A stretch of 49,243 nucleotides of DNA from assembly GCA_949297975.1 (NCBI GenBank), contig CASFUX010000108.1, positions 1 to 49,243 of the forward strand, written 5' to 3'. The notes beneath the pieces were generated by a model. The model saw nothing but the letters and a program-made list of their open reading frames with translations. It ran no database searches and was not told where the DNA came from. The number at the start of each line of letters is the position of its first letter. The stretch's first letter is position 1. Source of the stretch: an uncultured Bacteroidales bacterium (lineage in GTDB: Bacteria; Bacteroidota; Bacteroidia; Bacteroidales; Paludibacteraceae). Positions 2,095-49,240 of this stretch are shown piece by piece. The translations under genes and the position numbers were made by a program.

Positions 2095-3333
2095 TCATTC
2101 CCTCACCTGCCCGTTGCCCCGGATGAGCCATTTGTACGTGCACAGCTCGGCCAGTGCCATGGGTCCCCGCGCGTGCAGCTTCTGGGTGCTGATGCCAATC
2201 TCCGCGCCGAGGCCGAACTGCGCCCCGTCCGTGAAGGCGGTCGATACGTTGGCGTACACGCAAGCCGCGTCCACCGTGCGCAGGAAGCGGTCGATGCGCT
2301 CCTCGCTCTCGCTCACGATGCATTCGCTGTGCTTCGAGCCGTAGCGGGCGATGTGCTGCAAGGCCTCTTCGAGCGAGTCCACGGTGCGGACGGCCATCTT
2401 GTAGTCCAGAAATTCCGTGCCGAAGCTCTCCTCCGTGGCGGGTTGCAGCAAGGGGGCGGGGTAACGGCCTTCGAGGGCGGCGTAGGCGCGTGGGTCGGCA
2501 TACACGGTCACGTGGCGGTCGGCCAGCCGACGGCACAGGTCGGGCAGGTCGGCCAGTCGGGCGGCGTGCACGATGAGGCAGTCCAGCGCGTTGCACACGC
2601 TTACCCGGCGCGTCTTGGCGTTGTAGATGATGCGTTCGCCCTTGGCGGTGTCGCCGTGTTCGTCGAAGTACGTGTGGCAGATGCCCGCGCCCGTCTCGAT
2701 GACCGGTACGCGCGAATGCCCGCGCACGAAGTCGATAAGCCCCCGTCCGCCGCGCGGGATGATGACGTCCACGTAGCCCGTGGCTTGCATCAGCTCGGTG
2801 GCGGCCTCGTGCCCGGCGGGCAGCAGGGTCACTGCGTCCGGGTCGATGCCCCGGCGCGACAGTACGGAGCGGATGAGCTGCACGATGGCTTCGTTGGAGT
2901 GCCACGCGTCGCTGCCGCCCTTGAGCACGCAGGCGTTGCCCGACTTCAGGCACAGGGAGAACACGTCGAAGCTCACGTTGGGACGCGCCTCGTAGATGAT
3001 GCCCACCACGCCGAAGGGCACGCTCACCTTCGTGAGTTTCATGCCGTTGGGGCGCACGGTCTCGGCCAGCACCCGCCCCAGCGGCGAGGGCAGCGAGGCC
3101 ACGTTGCGCATGTCGGCGGCGATGCCTTCGATGCGTTCGCGGGTGAGCAGCAGGCGGTCGCGCATCGGGTTGTCGGCGGGCATGGCGGCCAGGTCGCGGG
3201 CGTTGGCTTCCAGCAGGCGGTCGGCCTGCGCCACGGCTTCGTCGGCAATGGCGAGCAGCGTCTCGTTGATTTGTTCCTCGTGCAGCAGGTTGAGCGTGCG
3301 CGAGGCTCTTTGGGCGTTTTCTTTCCAGTTCAT
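2095..3333 (-). CDS. proA: Glutamate-5-semialdehyde dehydrogenase (gamma-glutamyl phosphate reductase)
   Basis: ProA catalyses the NADPH-dependent reduction of gamma-glutamyl phosphate to glutamate-5-semialdehyde, the second step of proline synthesis. The 412-residue length is normal for the family. Recognisable segments are the cofactor-domain stretch [11 protein letters not shown] (110-120), [12 protein letters not shown] (129-140) and the catalytic cysteine Cys247 in VSVCNAL. It is cytosolic and lies downstream of proB on the same strand. The two genes are separated by a 367-bp spacer filled by an array of mini-hairpins, which is unusual for a proBA operon. No separate promoter box was recognised for proA, so the array is probably transcribed between the two cistrons. 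Confidence 0.97.
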
Positions 3334-3349
3334 CTTTGGGTTGATATTA

Positions 3350-3697
3350 GTCCCCTGCGGGGACGATATTAAGCCTTACGGCTGAGATTAGGTCTTCGAC
3401 CGAGATTAGTGCGAAGCACGAGATTTGCCCTTTCGGGCGGGAGTGGCACTTCGTGCGAGATTGGAGATTAGGCCTTTGGCCGAGATTGGCCCTTTCGGGC
3501 GGGATTGGAGATTGGTGCTTGCGCACGAACCAATTCCCGGTCTCGGGCGGAGACCTGCTCTCGTGCGAAGCACTAATCTCAACTCTCGCACGTAGTGCTA
3601 CCCTCGCGCGTAGCGCAACTCTCTAATCCCGCACGAAGTGCCAATCTCGCGCGTAGCGCAAATCCCCCCGTAGGGCTATTCTCGCCCGCAAGGGCAA
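3350..3697. repeat. Array of about 17 mini-hairpins between proB and proA
   Basis: The spacer is built of 11-12 nt self-complementary units, typically a 4-bp stem with a 3-4 nt loop, separated by a 7-nt linker resembling NAATCTC. Stem starts lie near 3352, 3372, 3391, 3409, 3427, 3446, 3471, 3489, 3515, 3536, 3563, 3588, 3606, 3631, 3649, 3667 and 3684. Spacings cluster at 18 and 25, that is one or two linkers. Stems differ (CCCC/GGGG, AGCC/GGCT, GGTC/GACC, GCAC/GTGC, GCGC/GCGC) yet stay paired. Most units left of about 3530 have GNA/GNRA loops on the minus strand, and units right of 3560 have them on the plus strand. The array is therefore two opposed halves. Confidence 0.85.
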
Positions 3698-3700
3698 ATG

Positions 3701-4786
3701 TCATTCTATATACAAATAGTCGTAATGTATCACGGGCTTCTGGTTCTTCTGCCCGGCCAGTTGGCGGGCGGTGTCGCTGTCGCATTGCGCCTTGCCCACG
3801 CCCAGCAGATGCCCCTGGTCGTCCATGATTTTCACGATGTCGTCCTTCTCGAAGTCGCCTGCCACGCGGGTGATGCCCACGGGCAGCAGGCTCACCGCCT
3901 TGTCGCCGGTGAGGGCGCGTGCGGCGTTGGCGTTCACGTGCAGTTCGCCCTTGGCGAAGCCGCCGCTGTGGGCAATCCACTTCTTCACGCTCGACACCGC
4001 GCCCCGTGCCGCCACGAAGTGTGTGCATACTACGTTGCCTCCCTCGTGGAGCAGGTCGGTGAGGATGTGCTCGGTGCCGCCGTTGGCGATGTACACGTCG
4101 ATGCCCTCGTCGGCTATGCGGCGTGCGATGCCGGTCTTGGTGTGCATCCCGCCGCGCCCGAAGGTGGACTTGCCCGCCTGGATGAAGGCGGATACGTCGT
4201 CGGCGGGGCGTATCTCGCGTATCACGGTGGAGTGGGGGTCGGCAGGCGGGCCGTTGAATATGCCGTCGATGTTGCTCAGGATGACGAGTGCCTCCATGTC
4301 CATCATGGAGGCGATGAGGCCGGACAGTTCGTCGTTGTCCGTGAACATCAGTTCGGAGACGGACACCGCATCGTTCTCGTTCACGATGGGTATCACGCCG
4401 TTGTCTATCATGACCCTCATGCAGTTGCGCTGGTTGAGGTAGTGGCGGCGGTCGGCGAAGTTCTCCTTGGTAGTGAGCACCTGCCCCACCACGATGCCCT
4501 GCTCGCGGAACAGGTCGTAGTAATGGTTGATGAGCTTGGCCTGCCCCACGGCCGAGAAAAGTTGCCGCTGGTCCACCACGTCCATGCGGCGGTCCACCCG
4601 CAATGTGCTGCGCCCCGAGGCGACAGCCCCGGACGAGATGAGCACCACCTCCGCGCCTTCGCGGTGCAGCAGGGCCACCTGGTCCACCAGGGCGGACATG
4701 CGCGTGATGTTGAGCGTGCCGTCCGCGCGGGTCAGCACGTTGCTGCCTATCTTGACGGCGATGCGTTTGTAGCGTAGGGAGGTCAT
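3701..4786 (-). CDS. proB: Glutamate 5-kinase
   Basis: ProB phosphorylates glutamate with ATP to give gamma-glutamyl phosphate, the committed and normally proline-inhibited step of proline synthesis. The 361-residue protein has the amino-acid kinase fold at about residues 5-255, starting with IAVKIGSNVLT and containing VLISSGAVASG. A PUA domain follows at about 270-350, so this is the long two-domain form. The C-terminal end overlaps the right edge of the hairpin array. The upstream spacer (4787-4829) carries short degenerate repeats of a TAAGTCA type just before the ATG, and no clear -7 box was seen. Confidence 0.97.
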   Translation of the reverse strand: MTSLRYKRIAVKIGSNVLTRADGTLNITRMSALVDQVALLHREGAEVVLISSGAVASGRSTLRVDRRMDVVDQRQLFSAVGQAKLINHYYDLFREQGIVVGQVLTTKENFADRRHYLNQRNCMRVMIDNGVIPIVNENDAVSVSELMFTDNDELSGLIASMMDMEALVILSNIDGIFNGPPADPHSTVIREIRPADDVSAFIQAGKSTFGRGGMHTKTGIARRIADEGIDVYIANGGTEHILTDLLHEGGNVVCTHFVAARGAVSSVKKWIAHSGGFAKGELHVNANAARALTGDKAVSLLPVGITRVAGDFEKDDIVKIMDDQGHLLGVGKAQCDSDTARQLAGQKNQKPVIHYDYLYIE

Positions 4787-6473: not shown

Positions 6474-6556
6474 GAAATTCCCTTATAACGGAAATATTTT
6501 TCCGTAGGCACGGAAATAAAATTCCGTAGTAAGGGAATAATATTTCCGTACTGACG
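6474..6556. repeat. TTCCGT-hairpin element, copy 1
   Basis: An 83-bp element made of consecutive small palindromes such as TTCCGTAGGCACGGAA and ATTCCGTAGTAAGGGAAT. It is nearly identical, at equal length, to the copy at 16968-17050. It lies upstream of the first adhesin-like gene, in a 554-bp spacer whose remaining content is a promoter and a structured leader. Confidence 0.85.
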
Positions 6557-10446: not shown

Positions 10447-10540
10447 GAAATTCCGTTATAACGCGGCCAAATTTCCGTAGGTACGGAAATAAAATTCCGT
10501 TATAACGCAGGAAAATTTCCGCAGGCACGGAATTTTATTG
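10447..10540. repeat. TTCCGT-hairpin element, copy 2
   Basis: A diverged copy with ATTCCGTTATAACG twice and TTTCCGTAGGTACGGAAAT plus GCAGGCACGGAA. It is placed between the first and second adhesin genes. Confidence 0.8.
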
Positions 10541-10915
10541 AACCGCTAAGACCGCAAAGAACGCCAAGGTTCATCCTTTGCGTCCTTTGCGCTCTCTGCG
10601 GTTAATGAAACCGCCGGGTTGTTTTATTGAACCGCTAAGAACGCCAAGACCGCCAAGTTCATCCTTTGCGTCCTTTGCGCTCTTTGCGGTTAATGAAACC
10701 GCCGGGTTGTTTTATTGAACCGCTAAGAATGCCAAGACCGCAAGTTCATCCTTTGCGTCCTTTGCGCTCTCTGCGGTTAATGACACCGCCGGGTTGTTTT
10801 ATTGAACCGCTAAGAATGCCAAGACCGCCAAGTTCATCCTTTGCGTCCTTTGCGCTCTTTGCGGTTAATAAAACCGTTCTCTGCGGTTAATGAAACCGCT
10901 CCTTGCGGTTCAATC
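10537..10915. repeat. Four tandem 87-89 bp units of the AACCGCTAAG family
   Basis: Units start with ATTGAACCGCTAAG at 10537, 10626, 10714 and 10801. Each carries a right arm reading CCTTTGCGC-CTCT/CTTT-GCGGTT, so every unit is itself an inverted repeat. Each is followed by AATGAAACCGCCGGGTTG or a near copy. A degraded fragment continues to about 10915. The array fills most of the 607-bp spacer between two adhesin genes. Spacing is constant and no variable spacers exist, so it is not a CRISPR. Confidence 0.85.
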
Positions 10916-19956: not shown

Positions 19957-19967
19957 AAATGTAGAAG

Positions 19968-20127
19968 CCGGAAGTCAGCATACAGCAGTCAGAACAGAGA
20001 AGTCGGAAGTCAGAAAACAACAAACTGAAGCAAGAGGGACGCAGATGACAGGTTTCCCATCTTATGATTGCTGCTTTCTGCCTTCGGTATGCTGACTTCC
20101 GACTTCTGTATTCCGACTTCTGCCAAA
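19968..20127. repeat. GGAAGTCAG / CTGACTTCC inverted repeat
   Basis: The left part repeats GGAAGTCAG-type words several times, and the right part (from about 20086) repeats CTGACTTCCGACTTCTG. Together they form a large imperfect inverted repeat between argH and the exonuclease gene. Confidence 0.65.
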
Positions 20128-20140
20128 CAACCATCCACAC

Positions 20141-20908: not shown

Positions 20909-21005
20909 CTACAAGCTACAAGCTACGAGCTACAAGTCGTATGCGCTGAGGTGTTCGCCCTCACACCGCATGGTACTTGTAACTCGTAGCTTGTAGCTTG
21001 TAGCT
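20907..21005. terminator. Long AGCTACAAG inverted repeat between convergent genes
   Basis: The left arm (20907-20936) repeats AGCTACAAG three times. The right arm (20976-21005) is its near-perfect reverse complement, about 30 bp each, around a 39-nt loop. It lies between the stop codons of the exonuclease (plus) and corA (minus), so bidirectional termination is likely. Confidence 0.7.
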
Positions 21006-21010
21006 GCTGC

Positions 21011-23448: not shown

Positions 23449-23627
23449 TTTAACCGCAAAGAGCGCAGAGGGCGCAAAGGCATTTTCTCTGATTTCACCA
23501 CAGAGTTCTTATTTATTAACCGCAAAGAGCGCAAAGGACGCAAAGGTCATCCGGTCGGCAGTCAACGGTCAACAATCTGTCGTTTCGCTGCCGGATGGCC
23601 TTTGCGTCCTTTGCGCTCTTTGCGGTT
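23449..23627. repeat. AACCGCAAAG inverted repeat with 29-bp perfect arms
   Basis: The arms at 23518-23546 (AACCGCAAAGAGCGCAAAGG and continuation) and 23599-23627 are perfectly complementary. A further left-arm-like copy lies at 23449. It fills the spacer between the convergent GtrA-family and serA genes and could terminate both. Confidence 0.8.
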
Positions 23628-25922: not shown

Positions 25923-26012
25923 GAAATTGCGTTATAACGGGGCTGGATTTCCGTAGGTACGGAATTTTATTTCCGATATAACGGAAATAAATTTTCAGTA
26001 TAGCGGAAATAT
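25923..26012. repeat. TTCCGT-hairpin element, copy 4
   Basis: The most diverged copy, with GCGTTATAACGGGG, TTTCCGTAGGTACGGAA and TTCCGATATAACGGAA. It lies in the 390-bp spacer between the divergent serC and HD-domain genes, next to a GAGACG palindrome at 26044-26064. Confidence 0.75.
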
Positions 26013-30741: not shown

Positions 30742-30800
30742 AATGTTCAGCGATTGACGATTAGGGATTAATGATTAGTGTTTAGTGATTAGCGTTTAGT
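30742..30800 (-). repeat. Degenerate short direct repeats in front of rmuC
   Basis: A GATTAGTGTTTAGT-type 14-bp word recurs, flanked by diverged copies (GATTGAC, GATTAGGG, GATTAAT). It belongs to the same class of leader repeats as at 14244. Confidence 0.6.
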
Positions 30801-30809
30801 GATGAACGG

Positions 30810-33909: not shown

Positions 33910-34129
33910 AGATGTTTTCCAAATCATGAGCAGATGTTTTCCCAAACGTGAGCACAAGTTTTACTGCCCACAGTTATGGGTTATACGACCCACAGTTATG
34001 GGTTGTACGACCCACAGTTATGGGTTATATAACCCACAACTGTGGGCTGTAAAACTTCTCAGCAGAATTAGGAAAAGTCATGCTGACAAACCGGAAAAGT
34101 TATGCTGACAAAGCGGAAAAATCATGCAA
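33910..34129. repeat. Ten phased 22-bp units upstream of parE
   Basis: Units begin exactly every 22 bp at 33910, 33932, 33954, 33976, 33998, 34020, 34042, 34064, 34086 and 34108. Sequence drifts along the array. Units 1-2 share AGATGTTTTCC, units 4-6 share ATGGGTT-N-TA with CCCACAG, and units 8-10 share GGAAAAGTCATGC-type words. Units 4-6 each contain a small palindrome (GGGT/ACCC), and unit 6 contains GGGTTATATAACCC. The exact two-helical-turn period suggests protein binding on one DNA face. The array fills most of the spacer between parE and the DUF5686 gene. Confidence 0.85.
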
Positions 34130-37649: not shown

Positions 37650-38051
37650 ACCAAAATATAAATACAATAGACACAATAGCATAGCAGGAGGAATAGCGCG
37701 GCTTGTCCCACGCAGACAAGGGAAGTTCACAATAGTTTGTCCCGATGCTACACCTCGGGACGGTGGATGGCAACGGTTGCTGCTGTCTGTCAAGCTGGAA
37801 AGCTATGTGTGCTCCCCGGAGACGGGGCACGCCCTGTCTCTACTGAAGCTGTGTAAAAAAGTACCATTTTCATGCCGTCCTCGTCATTTCGAGCGCAGCG
37901 AGAAATCTCACAGTGGCTTTGGAAGCGTTGTAGAAGGGGATTTCTCCCTACGGTCGAAATGACGGCAGGTTTGTTTCGTGGTTTTCATACAGCCTCTACT
38001 ACGCATGGGTGATAAACTTCCTATTGTATCTATTGTGTTTTATATTTTGGT
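37650..38051. mobile_element. Nonautonomous element A with 30-bp terminal inverted repeats
   Basis: The ends read ACCAAAATATAAATACAATA and continue with GACACAATAG (37650-37679). The right end (38021-38051) is a near-perfect reverse complement. The 402-bp element has no coding capacity. It contains a CCCGATG/CGGGAC hairpin, a GAGACGGGGC palindrome (37819-37840) and a nested second repeat (37883-37963) with ends GTCATTTCGAGCGCAGCGAG and TCGAAATGAC. With element B it fills the 794-bp spacer before the SpmAB gene. Confidence 0.7.
37883..37963. repeat. GTCATTTCGA inverted repeat nested in element A
   Basis: The arms are GTCATTTCGAGCGCAGCGAG plus AAATCTC, and GGATTTCTCCCTACGGTCGA plus AATGAC. This second repeat family is absent from element B, which suggests an insertion into element A. 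Confidence 0.65.
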
Positions 38052-40270: not shown

Positions 40271-40403
40271 GAACCCTTAGGCAAAAGGGTCGTACCCCTT
40301 TGGGCAAAAGGCTCGCACCCCTTTGGGCAAAGGGTTCGTACCCCTTTGGGCAAAAGGTTCGCACCCCTTTTGGGCAAGTGGGCAAGACCCTTTTCAGAAG
40401 GGG
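40271..40403. repeat. 23-bp phased mini-palindrome array between convergent genes
   Basis: Units begin near 40271, 40292, 40315, 40338, 40361 and 40384, the inner ones exactly 23 bp apart. Each contains ACCCCTTTGGGCAAAAGG or a close variant. The minus strand forms a CCTTT-GCCC-AAAGG-type hairpin with a short TACG/GCGA linker. The array lies between ybeY (plus) and the SLC13 gene (minus). Confidence 0.8.
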
Positions 40404-40429: not shown

Positions 40430-40510
40430 TAACCGCAAAAGGCGCAAAGGAAATGGAAACGACACGATCACTTCCATTTCCTTTGCGCCCTTTGCGCTCT
40501 CTGCGGTTAA
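40430..40510. repeat. AACCGCAAAAGGCG inverted repeat
   Basis: The left arm ATTAACCGCAAAAGGCGCAA and right arm TTTGCGCTCTCTGCGGTTAA frame an inner GGAAATGGAA/TTCCATTTCC stem. It is one of five loci of the AACCGCAAAG family, again between convergent genes. A C/G-run repeat follows at 40513-40540. Together with the 23-bp array these account for the 447-bp spacer. Confidence 0.75.
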
Positions 40511-49050: not shown

Positions 49051-49240
49051 CAGCAAACCATGTTGCTCCGAGATTGGAAAACTCAACACTAAAAAAATAA
49101 CGGGGTACATCGGCATTTCAATGGCGGGCTGCGCCTTCGGGTATGTCTTCGCGACACGGCAGATTACAAAGGATACCGACACCCCAAATCCTGTTTACAG
49201 GAGTTTTCTCAACAAACGGCAACATGGTTTGTCCTTTTTC
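49051..49240 (+). ncRNA. Rod-shaped structured RNA, 6S-like candidate
   Basis: About 190 nt. The closing stem is 13 bp and perfect: CAAACCATGTTGC (49054-49066) with GCAACATGGTTTG (49219-49231). A second stem GAAAACTC (49077-49084) pairs with GAGTTTTC (49201-49208). An asymmetric A-rich bubble follows (about 49085-49102 opposite 49180-49200), then an interrupted apical stem with GGGGT/ACCCC, TCGG/CCGA and a terminal TGTC-TTCGC-GACA-like loop. The end is TCCTTTTTC, a U-run. Length, central bubble and end pairing match the 6S RNA architecture; identity was not tested against a covariance model. Confidence 0.6.

What the first reader, a model, noticed from the sequence alone, without database searches (positions are those of the whole stretch)
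3350..3697. Two opposed arrays of GNA/GNRA-loop mini-hairpins inside the proBA operon
Direct reading shows about 17 units of 18 nt: an 11-nt hairpin plus a 7-nt linker near NAATCTC, with spacing of 25 where the linker is doubled. Stems change from unit to unit yet keep complementarity, which argues for selection on pairing and not simple tandem duplication. Nearly all loops are GNA or GNRA when read on the minus strand left of about 3530 and on the plus strand right of about 3560. The array is therefore directional and flips in the middle. It sits between proB and proA and would be carried in their mRNA. GNRA loops are classic docking or protein-recognition loops, so a role in RNA folding, RNase processing, or differential proA/proB expression is possible. 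I know of no described element with this unit structure.
Basis: partly seen in the sequence, partly recalled or inferred. Interest (0 to 1): 0.78.

Follow-up and report, generated by a model that had tools for sequence, protein, structure and literature searches.

The report
Intervening-sequence-like repeat between proline genes
Between the proline genes proB and proA of a bacterium (likely a Bacteroidales) lie 16 tiny hairpins in two opposed halves, one of twelve such runs found in its genome; the run is likely a gene-less relative of the "intervening sequence" insertions known from ribosomal RNA genes, which would mean that such insertions also sit inside ordinary operons.

Summary
In detail: 16 mini-hairpins with heptamer linkers in two opposed halves, GNA/GNRA loops in 14 of 16. 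Pairing survives stem changes: a pattern leaving the stems free found 25 units in this genome, 24 complementary, reversed control 0. It is not private to proBA: twelve such arrays were found here, 11 between co-directional genes. In one (contig C99) an S23 gene (PF05635, the protein of 23S rRNA intervening sequences) sits at the flip; one congener has the same S23 with single hairpin units, a closer one an empty site with overlapping genes. S23 genes mostly lie between opposed repeats (23 of 35 sites), along their operon (29 sites, against it 1), also on cyanobacterial plasmids. Best reading: an ORF-less, IVS-like insertion whose arms would pair in the proB-proA mRNA. RNase III cutting and mobility are inferred. 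A proBA-specific RNA is not supported: three congeners lack the array in this spacer.

The parts
3701..4786 (-). proB (glutamate 5-kinase), gene upstream in the transcript
   Evidence: 361-aa ORF, Pfam AA_kinase + PUA
3563..3695 (+). 5' half of the array in the mRNA (mRNA is the minus strand): 7 mini-hairpins with GRGATTR-like linkers in the mRNA, GNA/GNRA loops on the plus strand
3527..3562 (.). flip between the two halves; inverted repeats I1-I7 join the halves at 71-86% complementarity
   Evidence: reading of the sequence
3350..3526 (-). 3' half of the array in the mRNA: 9 mini-hairpins with YAATCTC-like linkers, GNA/GNRA loops in 7 of 9
2095..3333 (-). proA (glutamyl-5-phosphate reductase), gene downstream; start codon 16 nt after the last hairpin
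   Evidence: 412-aa ORF, Pfam Aldedh; the name proA follows from its place after proB and from the orthologues
19957..20140 (.). sister architecture in the same window: opposed heptamer arrays (GAAGTCA type / TGACTTC type) without S23 in the spacer between two co-directional genes
   Evidence: neighbours Lyase_1 and exonuclease
20909..21010 (.). sister architecture: opposed heptamer arrays (AGCTACA / TGTAGCT), here between convergent genes
   Evidence: neighbours exonuclease and CorA

Best explanation
The array lies between proB and proA and is likely an ORF-less relative of the S23 (PF05635) intervening-sequence elements, whose two opposed repeat arms are predicted to pair in the proB-proA mRNA and would be cut out there by RNase III, as is known for intervening sequences of 23S rRNA. 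Shown by sequence: sixteen mini-hairpins with heptamer linkers in two opposed arms occupy the spacer from stop to start; eleven sister arrays were found in this genome; in one of them the flip holds an intact S23 ORF; at that site a congener has the same S23 gene with single hairpin units and a closer relative has no element at all, its two genes overlapping; S23 genes in many genomes lie between opposed repeats, pointing with the operon, and one S23 insertion in a 23S rRNA gene has the same opposed heptamer arms. Inferred: that the proBA array descends from such an element (loss of the ORF, or spread of the flanks alone), that the arms grow by slippage and tandem duplication, that S23 or another protein acts on the arms in trans, that the mRNA is cut there, and that the element moves at all. 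Untested: any effect on the ratio of ProB to ProA.
For: (1) Same unit and layout in 12 arrays of this genome; 11 of 12 between co-directional genes, starting within about 30 nt of the upstream stop (for L001 and L003 with the ORFs, for the window and L138 by reading); the twelfth (C17:20191) stands beside an RNase P RNA gene and its other neighbour was not resolved. In 5 of 11 the upstream ORF ends inside the array (-RD stop, encoded by GATTAG or GATTGA of a linker). (2) C99: S23 ORF of 122 aa (PF05635, E 1e-26) between the GAGATT half and the AATCTC half. (3) G003: S23 at 82% identity at the same place, with one hairpin unit upstream and one downstream; G002 (93%): no element, stop and start overlap. 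(4) 49 S23 loci: shared inverted 8-mers of the two flanks 13.6 on average against 1.97 for 29 proB loci (Mann-Whitney p 2.6e-7); more than 5 in 33 of 49, and in 23 of 35 independent sites; orientation with both neighbours 29, against both 1, mixed or uncalled 5. (5) S23 identity correlates with flank-heptamer similarity over 1152 non-orthologous pairs, r 0.19, permutation p 0.0005. (6) 13 plasmid S23 loci examined: 8 exceed the cross-pair 95% limit for inverted flanks; S23 lies between cas6 and cas4 twice and between cmr2 and cmr3 once; in Azospirillum lipoferum it interrupts 23S rRNA (RF02541 over the whole locus) between opposed heptamers. (7) In a published S23 IVS of 23S rRNA tandem heptamers stand just upstream of S23, RNase III cuts at the first of them and excises the element (PMC4990558, passages). 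(8) RNA of the array folds at -176.5 kcal/mol, z -9.3, with arm-to-arm pairing; limited to spans of 30 nt only -114.3.
Against: No S23 ORF in the proBA array; the link of hairpin-type arrays to S23 rests on one locus (C99 and its G003 orthologue), the link of S23 to opposed repeats on many. 16 of 49 S23 loci do not pass the inverted-flank threshold and 3 of 29 proB controls do. Direct 8-mer sharing is raised at S23 loci too (mean 7.6 against 3.1 for proB). The order of stems is not mirrored between the two arms, so they are not a simple inverted duplication. 5 of 13 plasmid S23 loci do not exceed the limit, one (L204) sharing nothing, and 2 of 11 annotated plasmid S23 genes run against both neighbours. 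Opposed heptamers also occur between convergent genes (window 20909-21010), and one hairpin array stands beside RNase P RNA. The empty site is a single case and may be a loss. In the folP-dacA spacer one orthologous unit is unpaired in G002. The Mantel effect is weak and may carry base composition. S23 neighbours were called by a longest-ORF rule. No transcript data.
Confidence: 0.55

Rival explanations
1. A REP/BIME-like selfish DNA repeat: the unit is kept because it folds as a very stable single-stranded DNA mini-hairpin (C-GNA-G triloop) that a hairpin-reading enzyme copies or moves, RNA being irrelevant.
For: GNA loops with C-G closure; a dispersed related hairpin, ATTYY-GA-NC-GNA-GN-GA-RRAAT-CTC, has 93 copies in G000 and 61 in G002, and its core pattern has hits in 63 of 395 Bacteroidota genomes, reversed control 0. 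With loop, GA and inner pair left free, 73 of 395 genomes match, against 7 reversed-control matches in 6 genomes. Of the rows listed there, 139 were analysed (the rows left out repeat sequences of G374 and G169), giving 106 distinct genome-sequence rows from 52 genomes, chance hits included: tandem GA on both sides 82 of 106, inner pair complementary 84 against 34 in shuffles, outer pairs 98 and 97 against 53 and 59, none of 2000 shuffles reaching them. Three of the 12 arrays (C17:27008, C40, C76) carry such GA hairpins.
Against: No Y1 transposase (RAYT, PF01797) in G000 or G002, the two congeners with the GA repeats, while G001 and G003, without them, have 1 and 5 (G000 and G002 are 88-89% complete). 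Loops are not strictly GNA: 54 of 106 in the free-loop search. Does not explain the stop-to-start placement or the S23 gene at the flip.
Confidence: 0.2
2. A neutral product of replication: slippage of heptamers plus template switching between near palindromes makes and repairs the hairpins, with no function.
For: Plain tandem duplications of 36 and about 55 nt in sister arrays; heptamer repeats are common in other genera (PMC4692102, PMC4679880, passages); quick turnover of the spacer between congeners; one unpaired orthologous unit in G002.
Against: Non-random place between co-directional genes (11 of 12; rough baseline 21 of 34 in the window); a coding gene (S23) nested along the operon in 29 sites against 1; covariation of the related hairpin over 52 genomes.
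Confidence: 0.15
3. One reading: a structured RNA that tunes proA against proB expression.
For: Occupies the intercistronic space; strong predicted RNA fold, z -9.3.
Against: Absent from the proB-proA spacer of all 15 other genomes whose spacer could be read, three congeners included (one of them, G026, has a single GCCCGAAGGGC hairpin, another, G010, a short opposed heptamer pair); found in 11 other places of the same genome; no Rfam match; no terminator-like site.
Confidence: 0.1

Closest known systems
S23-coding intervening sequences (IVS) of bacterial 23S rRNA (for example that of PMC4990558)
   Same: Inverted complementary termini, heptamers beside the S23 ORF, an S23 (PF05635) ORF in a sister element, place inside a (presumed) transcript, ORF-less versions known (recall: Salmonella IVS). 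The Azospirillum lipoferum 23S rRNA insertion has opposed heptamer arms.
   Different: Lies between protein genes and not in rRNA; arms are long arrays with mini-hairpins; this copy has no ORF; RNase III processing not shown.
Convergent heptamer arrays (GGGAATC) of Xanthomonas; GGGGATT arrays of Nostoc (PMC4692102)
   Same: Heptamer units, mostly intergenic; in Xanthomonas two sites in convergent orientation in 70 and 75 cases (passages).
   Different: No hairpins between heptamers in the passages read, and no occurrence of S23 or XCC0516 in its main text, although XCC0516 of the same genus is an S23 protein of known structure (2gsc).
TAACTGA heptamer repeats (PMC4679880)
   Same: Intergenic heptamers near start codons, also in some Bacteroidetes.
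   Different: Almost always direct repeats, not opposed; no S23 noted in the abstract and passages read.
REP / BIME / REPIN elements with RAYT
   Same: Intergenic short palindromes, opposed pairs, spread over a genome.
   Different: No RAYT found in this genome; no constant GTAG or CGTC tag; unit stems vary.
Avd protein of diversity-generating retroelements
   Same: PMC10053308 (passages) says that PF05635 resembles Avd and points to an alignment of structures 4DWL and 2GSC.
   Different: No reverse-transcriptase link tested here; a PDB profile search returned 2rld and 2gsc only, not 4DWL.

Membership tests
23S rRNA IVS (S23 type) | located inside a 23S rRNA gene | tested here: not met
   between proB and proA; no rRNA match in the window
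23S rRNA IVS (S23 type) | complementary inverted termini | tested here: met
   inverted pairs I1-I7, arm pairing in the predicted fold
23S rRNA IVS (S23 type) | S23 ORF (optional in known IVS, by recall) | tested here: not met
   none in 3334-3700; present in the sister array C99
23S rRNA IVS (S23 type) | excised from the transcript by RNase III | not testable with these tools
   needs RNA; known for rRNA IVS (PMC4990558, passages)
REP/RAYT | Y1 transposase (PF01797) in the genome | tested here: not met
   0 matches in G000 and G002; both MAGs are 88-89% complete
REP/RAYT | constant GTAG or CGTC tag at the foot of the palindrome | tested here: not met
   by reading the 16 units: the foot is followed by a NAATCTC-like heptamer
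Intrinsic terminator | GC stem followed by a T run | tested here: not met
   0 sites in 3300-3760
Rfam families | match at gathering score | tested here: not met
   only a tRNA and Bacteroidales-1 elsewhere in the window
Heptamer tandem repeats | head-to-tail 7-nt units | tested here: inconclusive
   linkers are heptamers and sometimes doubled, but separated by hairpins

The most novel reading that the evidence does not exclude
Intervening sequences are not a curiosity of rRNA but a bacteria-wide class of operon-resident elements: an S23 four-helix-bundle gene (Avd-like) between two opposed heptamer arms of matching specificity, inserted at stop/start junctions of co-transcribed genes, silent because the arms fold and are cut out of the mRNA; ORF-less copies such as the proBA array spread in trans, perhaps through an RNA intermediate.
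Probability: 0.35. Interest if true: 0.9.

Novelty: new variant of a known kind. Interest (0 to 1): 0.75.

Why it matters
The origin and purpose of rRNA intervening sequences and of the widespread S23 / four-helix-bundle protein have long been open. If the same element sits in mRNA spacers of several phyla, the question becomes testable: orthologous filled and empty sites exist, arm sequences vary with the protein lineage, and RNase III mutants can be read by RNA-seq. It would also explain many heptamer and hairpin repeats that now have no accepted origin, and why a small protein of unknown role turns up inside cas, sdh and polysaccharide operons.

Tried and rejected
Rejected or dropped: (a) private proBA RNA: other places carry the array, congeners lack it. 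(b) RAYT-driven REP: no PF01797 in G000 or G002, present in the congeners without the repeats. (c) A genome collection scan for a strict two-linker unit gave 6 stretches, close to what chance would give (my estimate); five look like chance hits and one (L014, Chloroflexota) has a similar GGAGATTG/CAATCTCC layout that I did not follow. (d) Relatives scan for a unit between two complete linkers: 0 of 60 other genomes. (e) Phage collection: no match to the array. (f) Papers: searches returned none; searches listed no paper on this repeat by its title (one search listed 20 of 45, 40 of 122, 20 of 34; the others listed all). A claim that this is not in print rests on these ten searches of an open-access library only. 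(g) Terminator: none. (h) Structure prediction of S23 was not attempted, since loci from the genome search are not among that tool's stated sources.

Full report
What is there. Window 3334-3700 is the spacer between proB (4786-3701, minus) and proA (3333-2095, minus). It is occupied by 16 mini-hairpins and heptamer linkers in two opposed halves. Read on the strand where the linker is NAATCTC-like, the loop is GNA or GNRA in 14 of 16. A Markov control of the same region gives 3.0 such hairpins on average and at most 9 in 5000 runs, against 16 observed. In the mRNA the 5' half carries GRGATTR linkers and the 3' half YAATCTC linkers, so the halves can pair with each other; the fold has z -9.3 as RNA and -7.8 as DNA, and limiting RNA pairs to 30 nt costs about 62 kcal/mol of predicted stability, so arm-to-arm pairing is predicted to matter and not only the local hairpins. 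The order of stems is not mirrored between the arms; because the linkers are repeats, arms of any length could pair.

Pairing is kept. A pattern that fixes G..CGNAG..C plus NAATCYC but leaves the two inner pairs free hits 25 places in this genome (4 of them in the window array, so it catches only part of the units) and none in three congeners, with no reversed-control hit; 24 of 25 have complementary stems, in six different stems (GCAC, GTGC, GCGC, GCCC, GGTC, GGGC), where 1 in 16 would be expected by chance. Units are not all independent: two sister arrays contain plain duplications of 36 and about 55 nt.

It is a family of sites. Searches give twelve arrays in this genome. In one search, and reading of the sequence for four of them, 11 lie between genes that point the same way, from within about 30 nt of the upstream stop to 6-68 nt before the next ATG (for C99 the next ATG is that of S23). 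The twelfth, C17:20191, stands beside an RNase P RNA gene; its other neighbour was not resolved. In five of the 11 the upstream ORF runs into the array and stops at a linker (-GRD, -ARD, -KRD). In the seven uninterrupted arrays that have both halves, GRGATT comes first in the mRNA each time (five by script, the window and L138 by reading), and the same holds for C99 around its S23 gene. As a rough baseline 21 of 34 neighbouring pairs in this window are co-directional (longest-ORF calling).

The S23 link. In contig C99 the two halves are separated by a 122-aa ORF that is a clear member of PF05635, the protein of 23S rRNA intervening sequences. At the orthologous place G003 has S23 at 82% identity, flanked by one hairpin unit upstream and one downstream; G002, much closer (93%), has no element and its two genes overlap at ATGA; G001 has no S23 there and a different spacer. 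So this hairpin type belongs to the flanks of one S23 lineage, and the whole unit is present or absent at a stop/start junction. Whether G002 shows an original or a restored empty site cannot be told.

S23 in general. PF05635 genes are found in 45 of 61 genomes (this one included, with 6). For 49 S23 loci (of 54 ORFs in 51 loci; the rest one duplicate and ORFs outside 85-160 aa) the two flanks share inverted 8-mers far above 29 proB loci (13.6 against 1.97 on average), pass a threshold of 5 in 33 of 49 and in 23 of 35 independent sites (3 of 29 in the control), and S23 points with both neighbours in 29 of 35 sites and against both in 1. Direct sharing is raised too (7.6 against 3.1). Heptamers differ from lineage to lineage (AGCTACA, AGTTACA, AGTGACA, GTTAAAG and others) and resemble each other more when the S23 proteins do (r 0.19, p 0.0005 over 1152 non-orthologous pairs). 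Recurrent sites include the spacer before sdhB and polysaccharide operons (recognised by me from the reading frames, not by a family search). On plasmids, 44 records hold relatives of one S23 protein and 1 record of another; of 13 loci looked at, annotation puts S23 between cas6 and cas4 in Pseudanabaena galeata and Anabaena sp. 90 and between cmr2 and cmr3 in Picosynechococcus; 9 of 11 annotated ones run with both neighbours and 2 against both; 8 of 13 exceed the cross-pair limit for inverted flanks and 5 do not. The Azospirillum lipoferum locus is a 23S rRNA gene (RF02541 over the whole stretch) interrupted by S23 between opposed heptamers: the classical place with the same arms. A published S23 intervening sequence has tandem heptamers directly before S23, and RNase III cuts at the first repeat (PMC4990558, passages).

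A second, related hairpin. The dispersed element GTCATTYYGA-NC-GNA-GN-GA-RRAATCTC has 93 copies here and 61 in G002, none in G001 and G003 (core pattern), and the core pattern occurs in 63 of 395 Bacteroidota genomes. With the loop, the tandem GA and the inner pair left free, 73 of 395 genomes match, against 7 reversed-control matches in 6 genomes; in 106 distinct rows from 52 of those genomes (the listing is cut short by the tool) the GA.GA motif is present in 82, the inner pair is complementary in 84 (shuffle mean 34), and the outer pairs in 98 and 97 (shuffle means 53 and 59). Loops are GNA in 54 of 106 and end in A in 76. Arrays in C17:27008, C40 and C76 contain such GA hairpins with the same linkers, and in G002 the proB-proA spacer itself holds a small array of them. 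It supports a structural constraint on the C-GNA-G hairpin; whether it acts in DNA or RNA is open.

Against the reading. The proBA copy has no ORF; the hairpin-to-S23 link is one locus in two species; one orthologous unit in G002 is unpaired; a third of S23 sites fail the flank test; opposed heptamers also stand between convergent genes in this window; there are no expression data. Processing by RNase III, action of S23 on the arms, and movement are inferences.

Place among known things. It works like an intervening sequence, but it is not filed as one: it is not in rRNA and this copy lacks S23. It is not a RAYT-linked REP as far as the genome is complete, not an intrinsic terminator, not an Rfam family. 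Convergent heptamer arrays are known in Xanthomonas (PMC4692102, passages) without any mention of S23 in that text. Ten searches of the open-access library, passages of ten papers and the abstract of one more gave no description of opposed heptamer or hairpin arms around S23 genes in operons.

Noticed in passing
window 37885-37963: A copy of the dispersed GA-mismatch hairpin element (GTCATTTCGAGCGCAGCGAGAAATCTC with an inverted partner) lies in this window; 93 copies in the genome, at least ten of them within 100 bases of a contig start, so it probably breaks the assembly.
   Followed up: partly
window 19957-20140 and 20909-21010: Two further opposed heptamer arrays without S23, each in one whole spacer, one between co-directional and one between convergent genes.
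   Followed up: partly
window 10533-10876, 23455-23624, 40443-40505: Opposed arrays of a 9-nt unit (CGCAAAGGA / TCCTTTGCG), in one place within a fourfold 88-nt tandem repeat: same opposed layout with another period.
   Followed up: no
window 6487-6550, 10448-10532, 25969-26011, 33910-34127, 40280-40394: Arrays of 22-23 nt units, most of them palindromic in themselves; probably other repeat families of the genome.
   Followed up: no
window 30759-30803: Heptamer array GATTAGT/GATTAGC without an opposed partner nearby.
   Followed up: no
L014 (Caldilineaceae MAG), about 2760-2900: A Chloroflexota locus with GGAGATTG / CAATCTCC repeats around a GGCC-GCA-GGCC hairpin, very like the window array.
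   Followed up: no
L208, L209, L214 (cyanobacterial plasmids): S23 genes nested inside CRISPR-Cas operons (cas6/cas4, cmr2/cmr3) beside or between repeats; may be mistaken for cas accessory genes.
   Followed up: partly
L121, 1501-1965 (G000 contig C17): A short hairpin array stands directly beside an RNase P RNA gene (RF00010 at 1581-1965 minus).
   Followed up: partly
window 49061-49230: Bacteroidales-1 (6S-like) RNA at the end of the window, in keeping with a Bacteroidales host.
   Followed up: no
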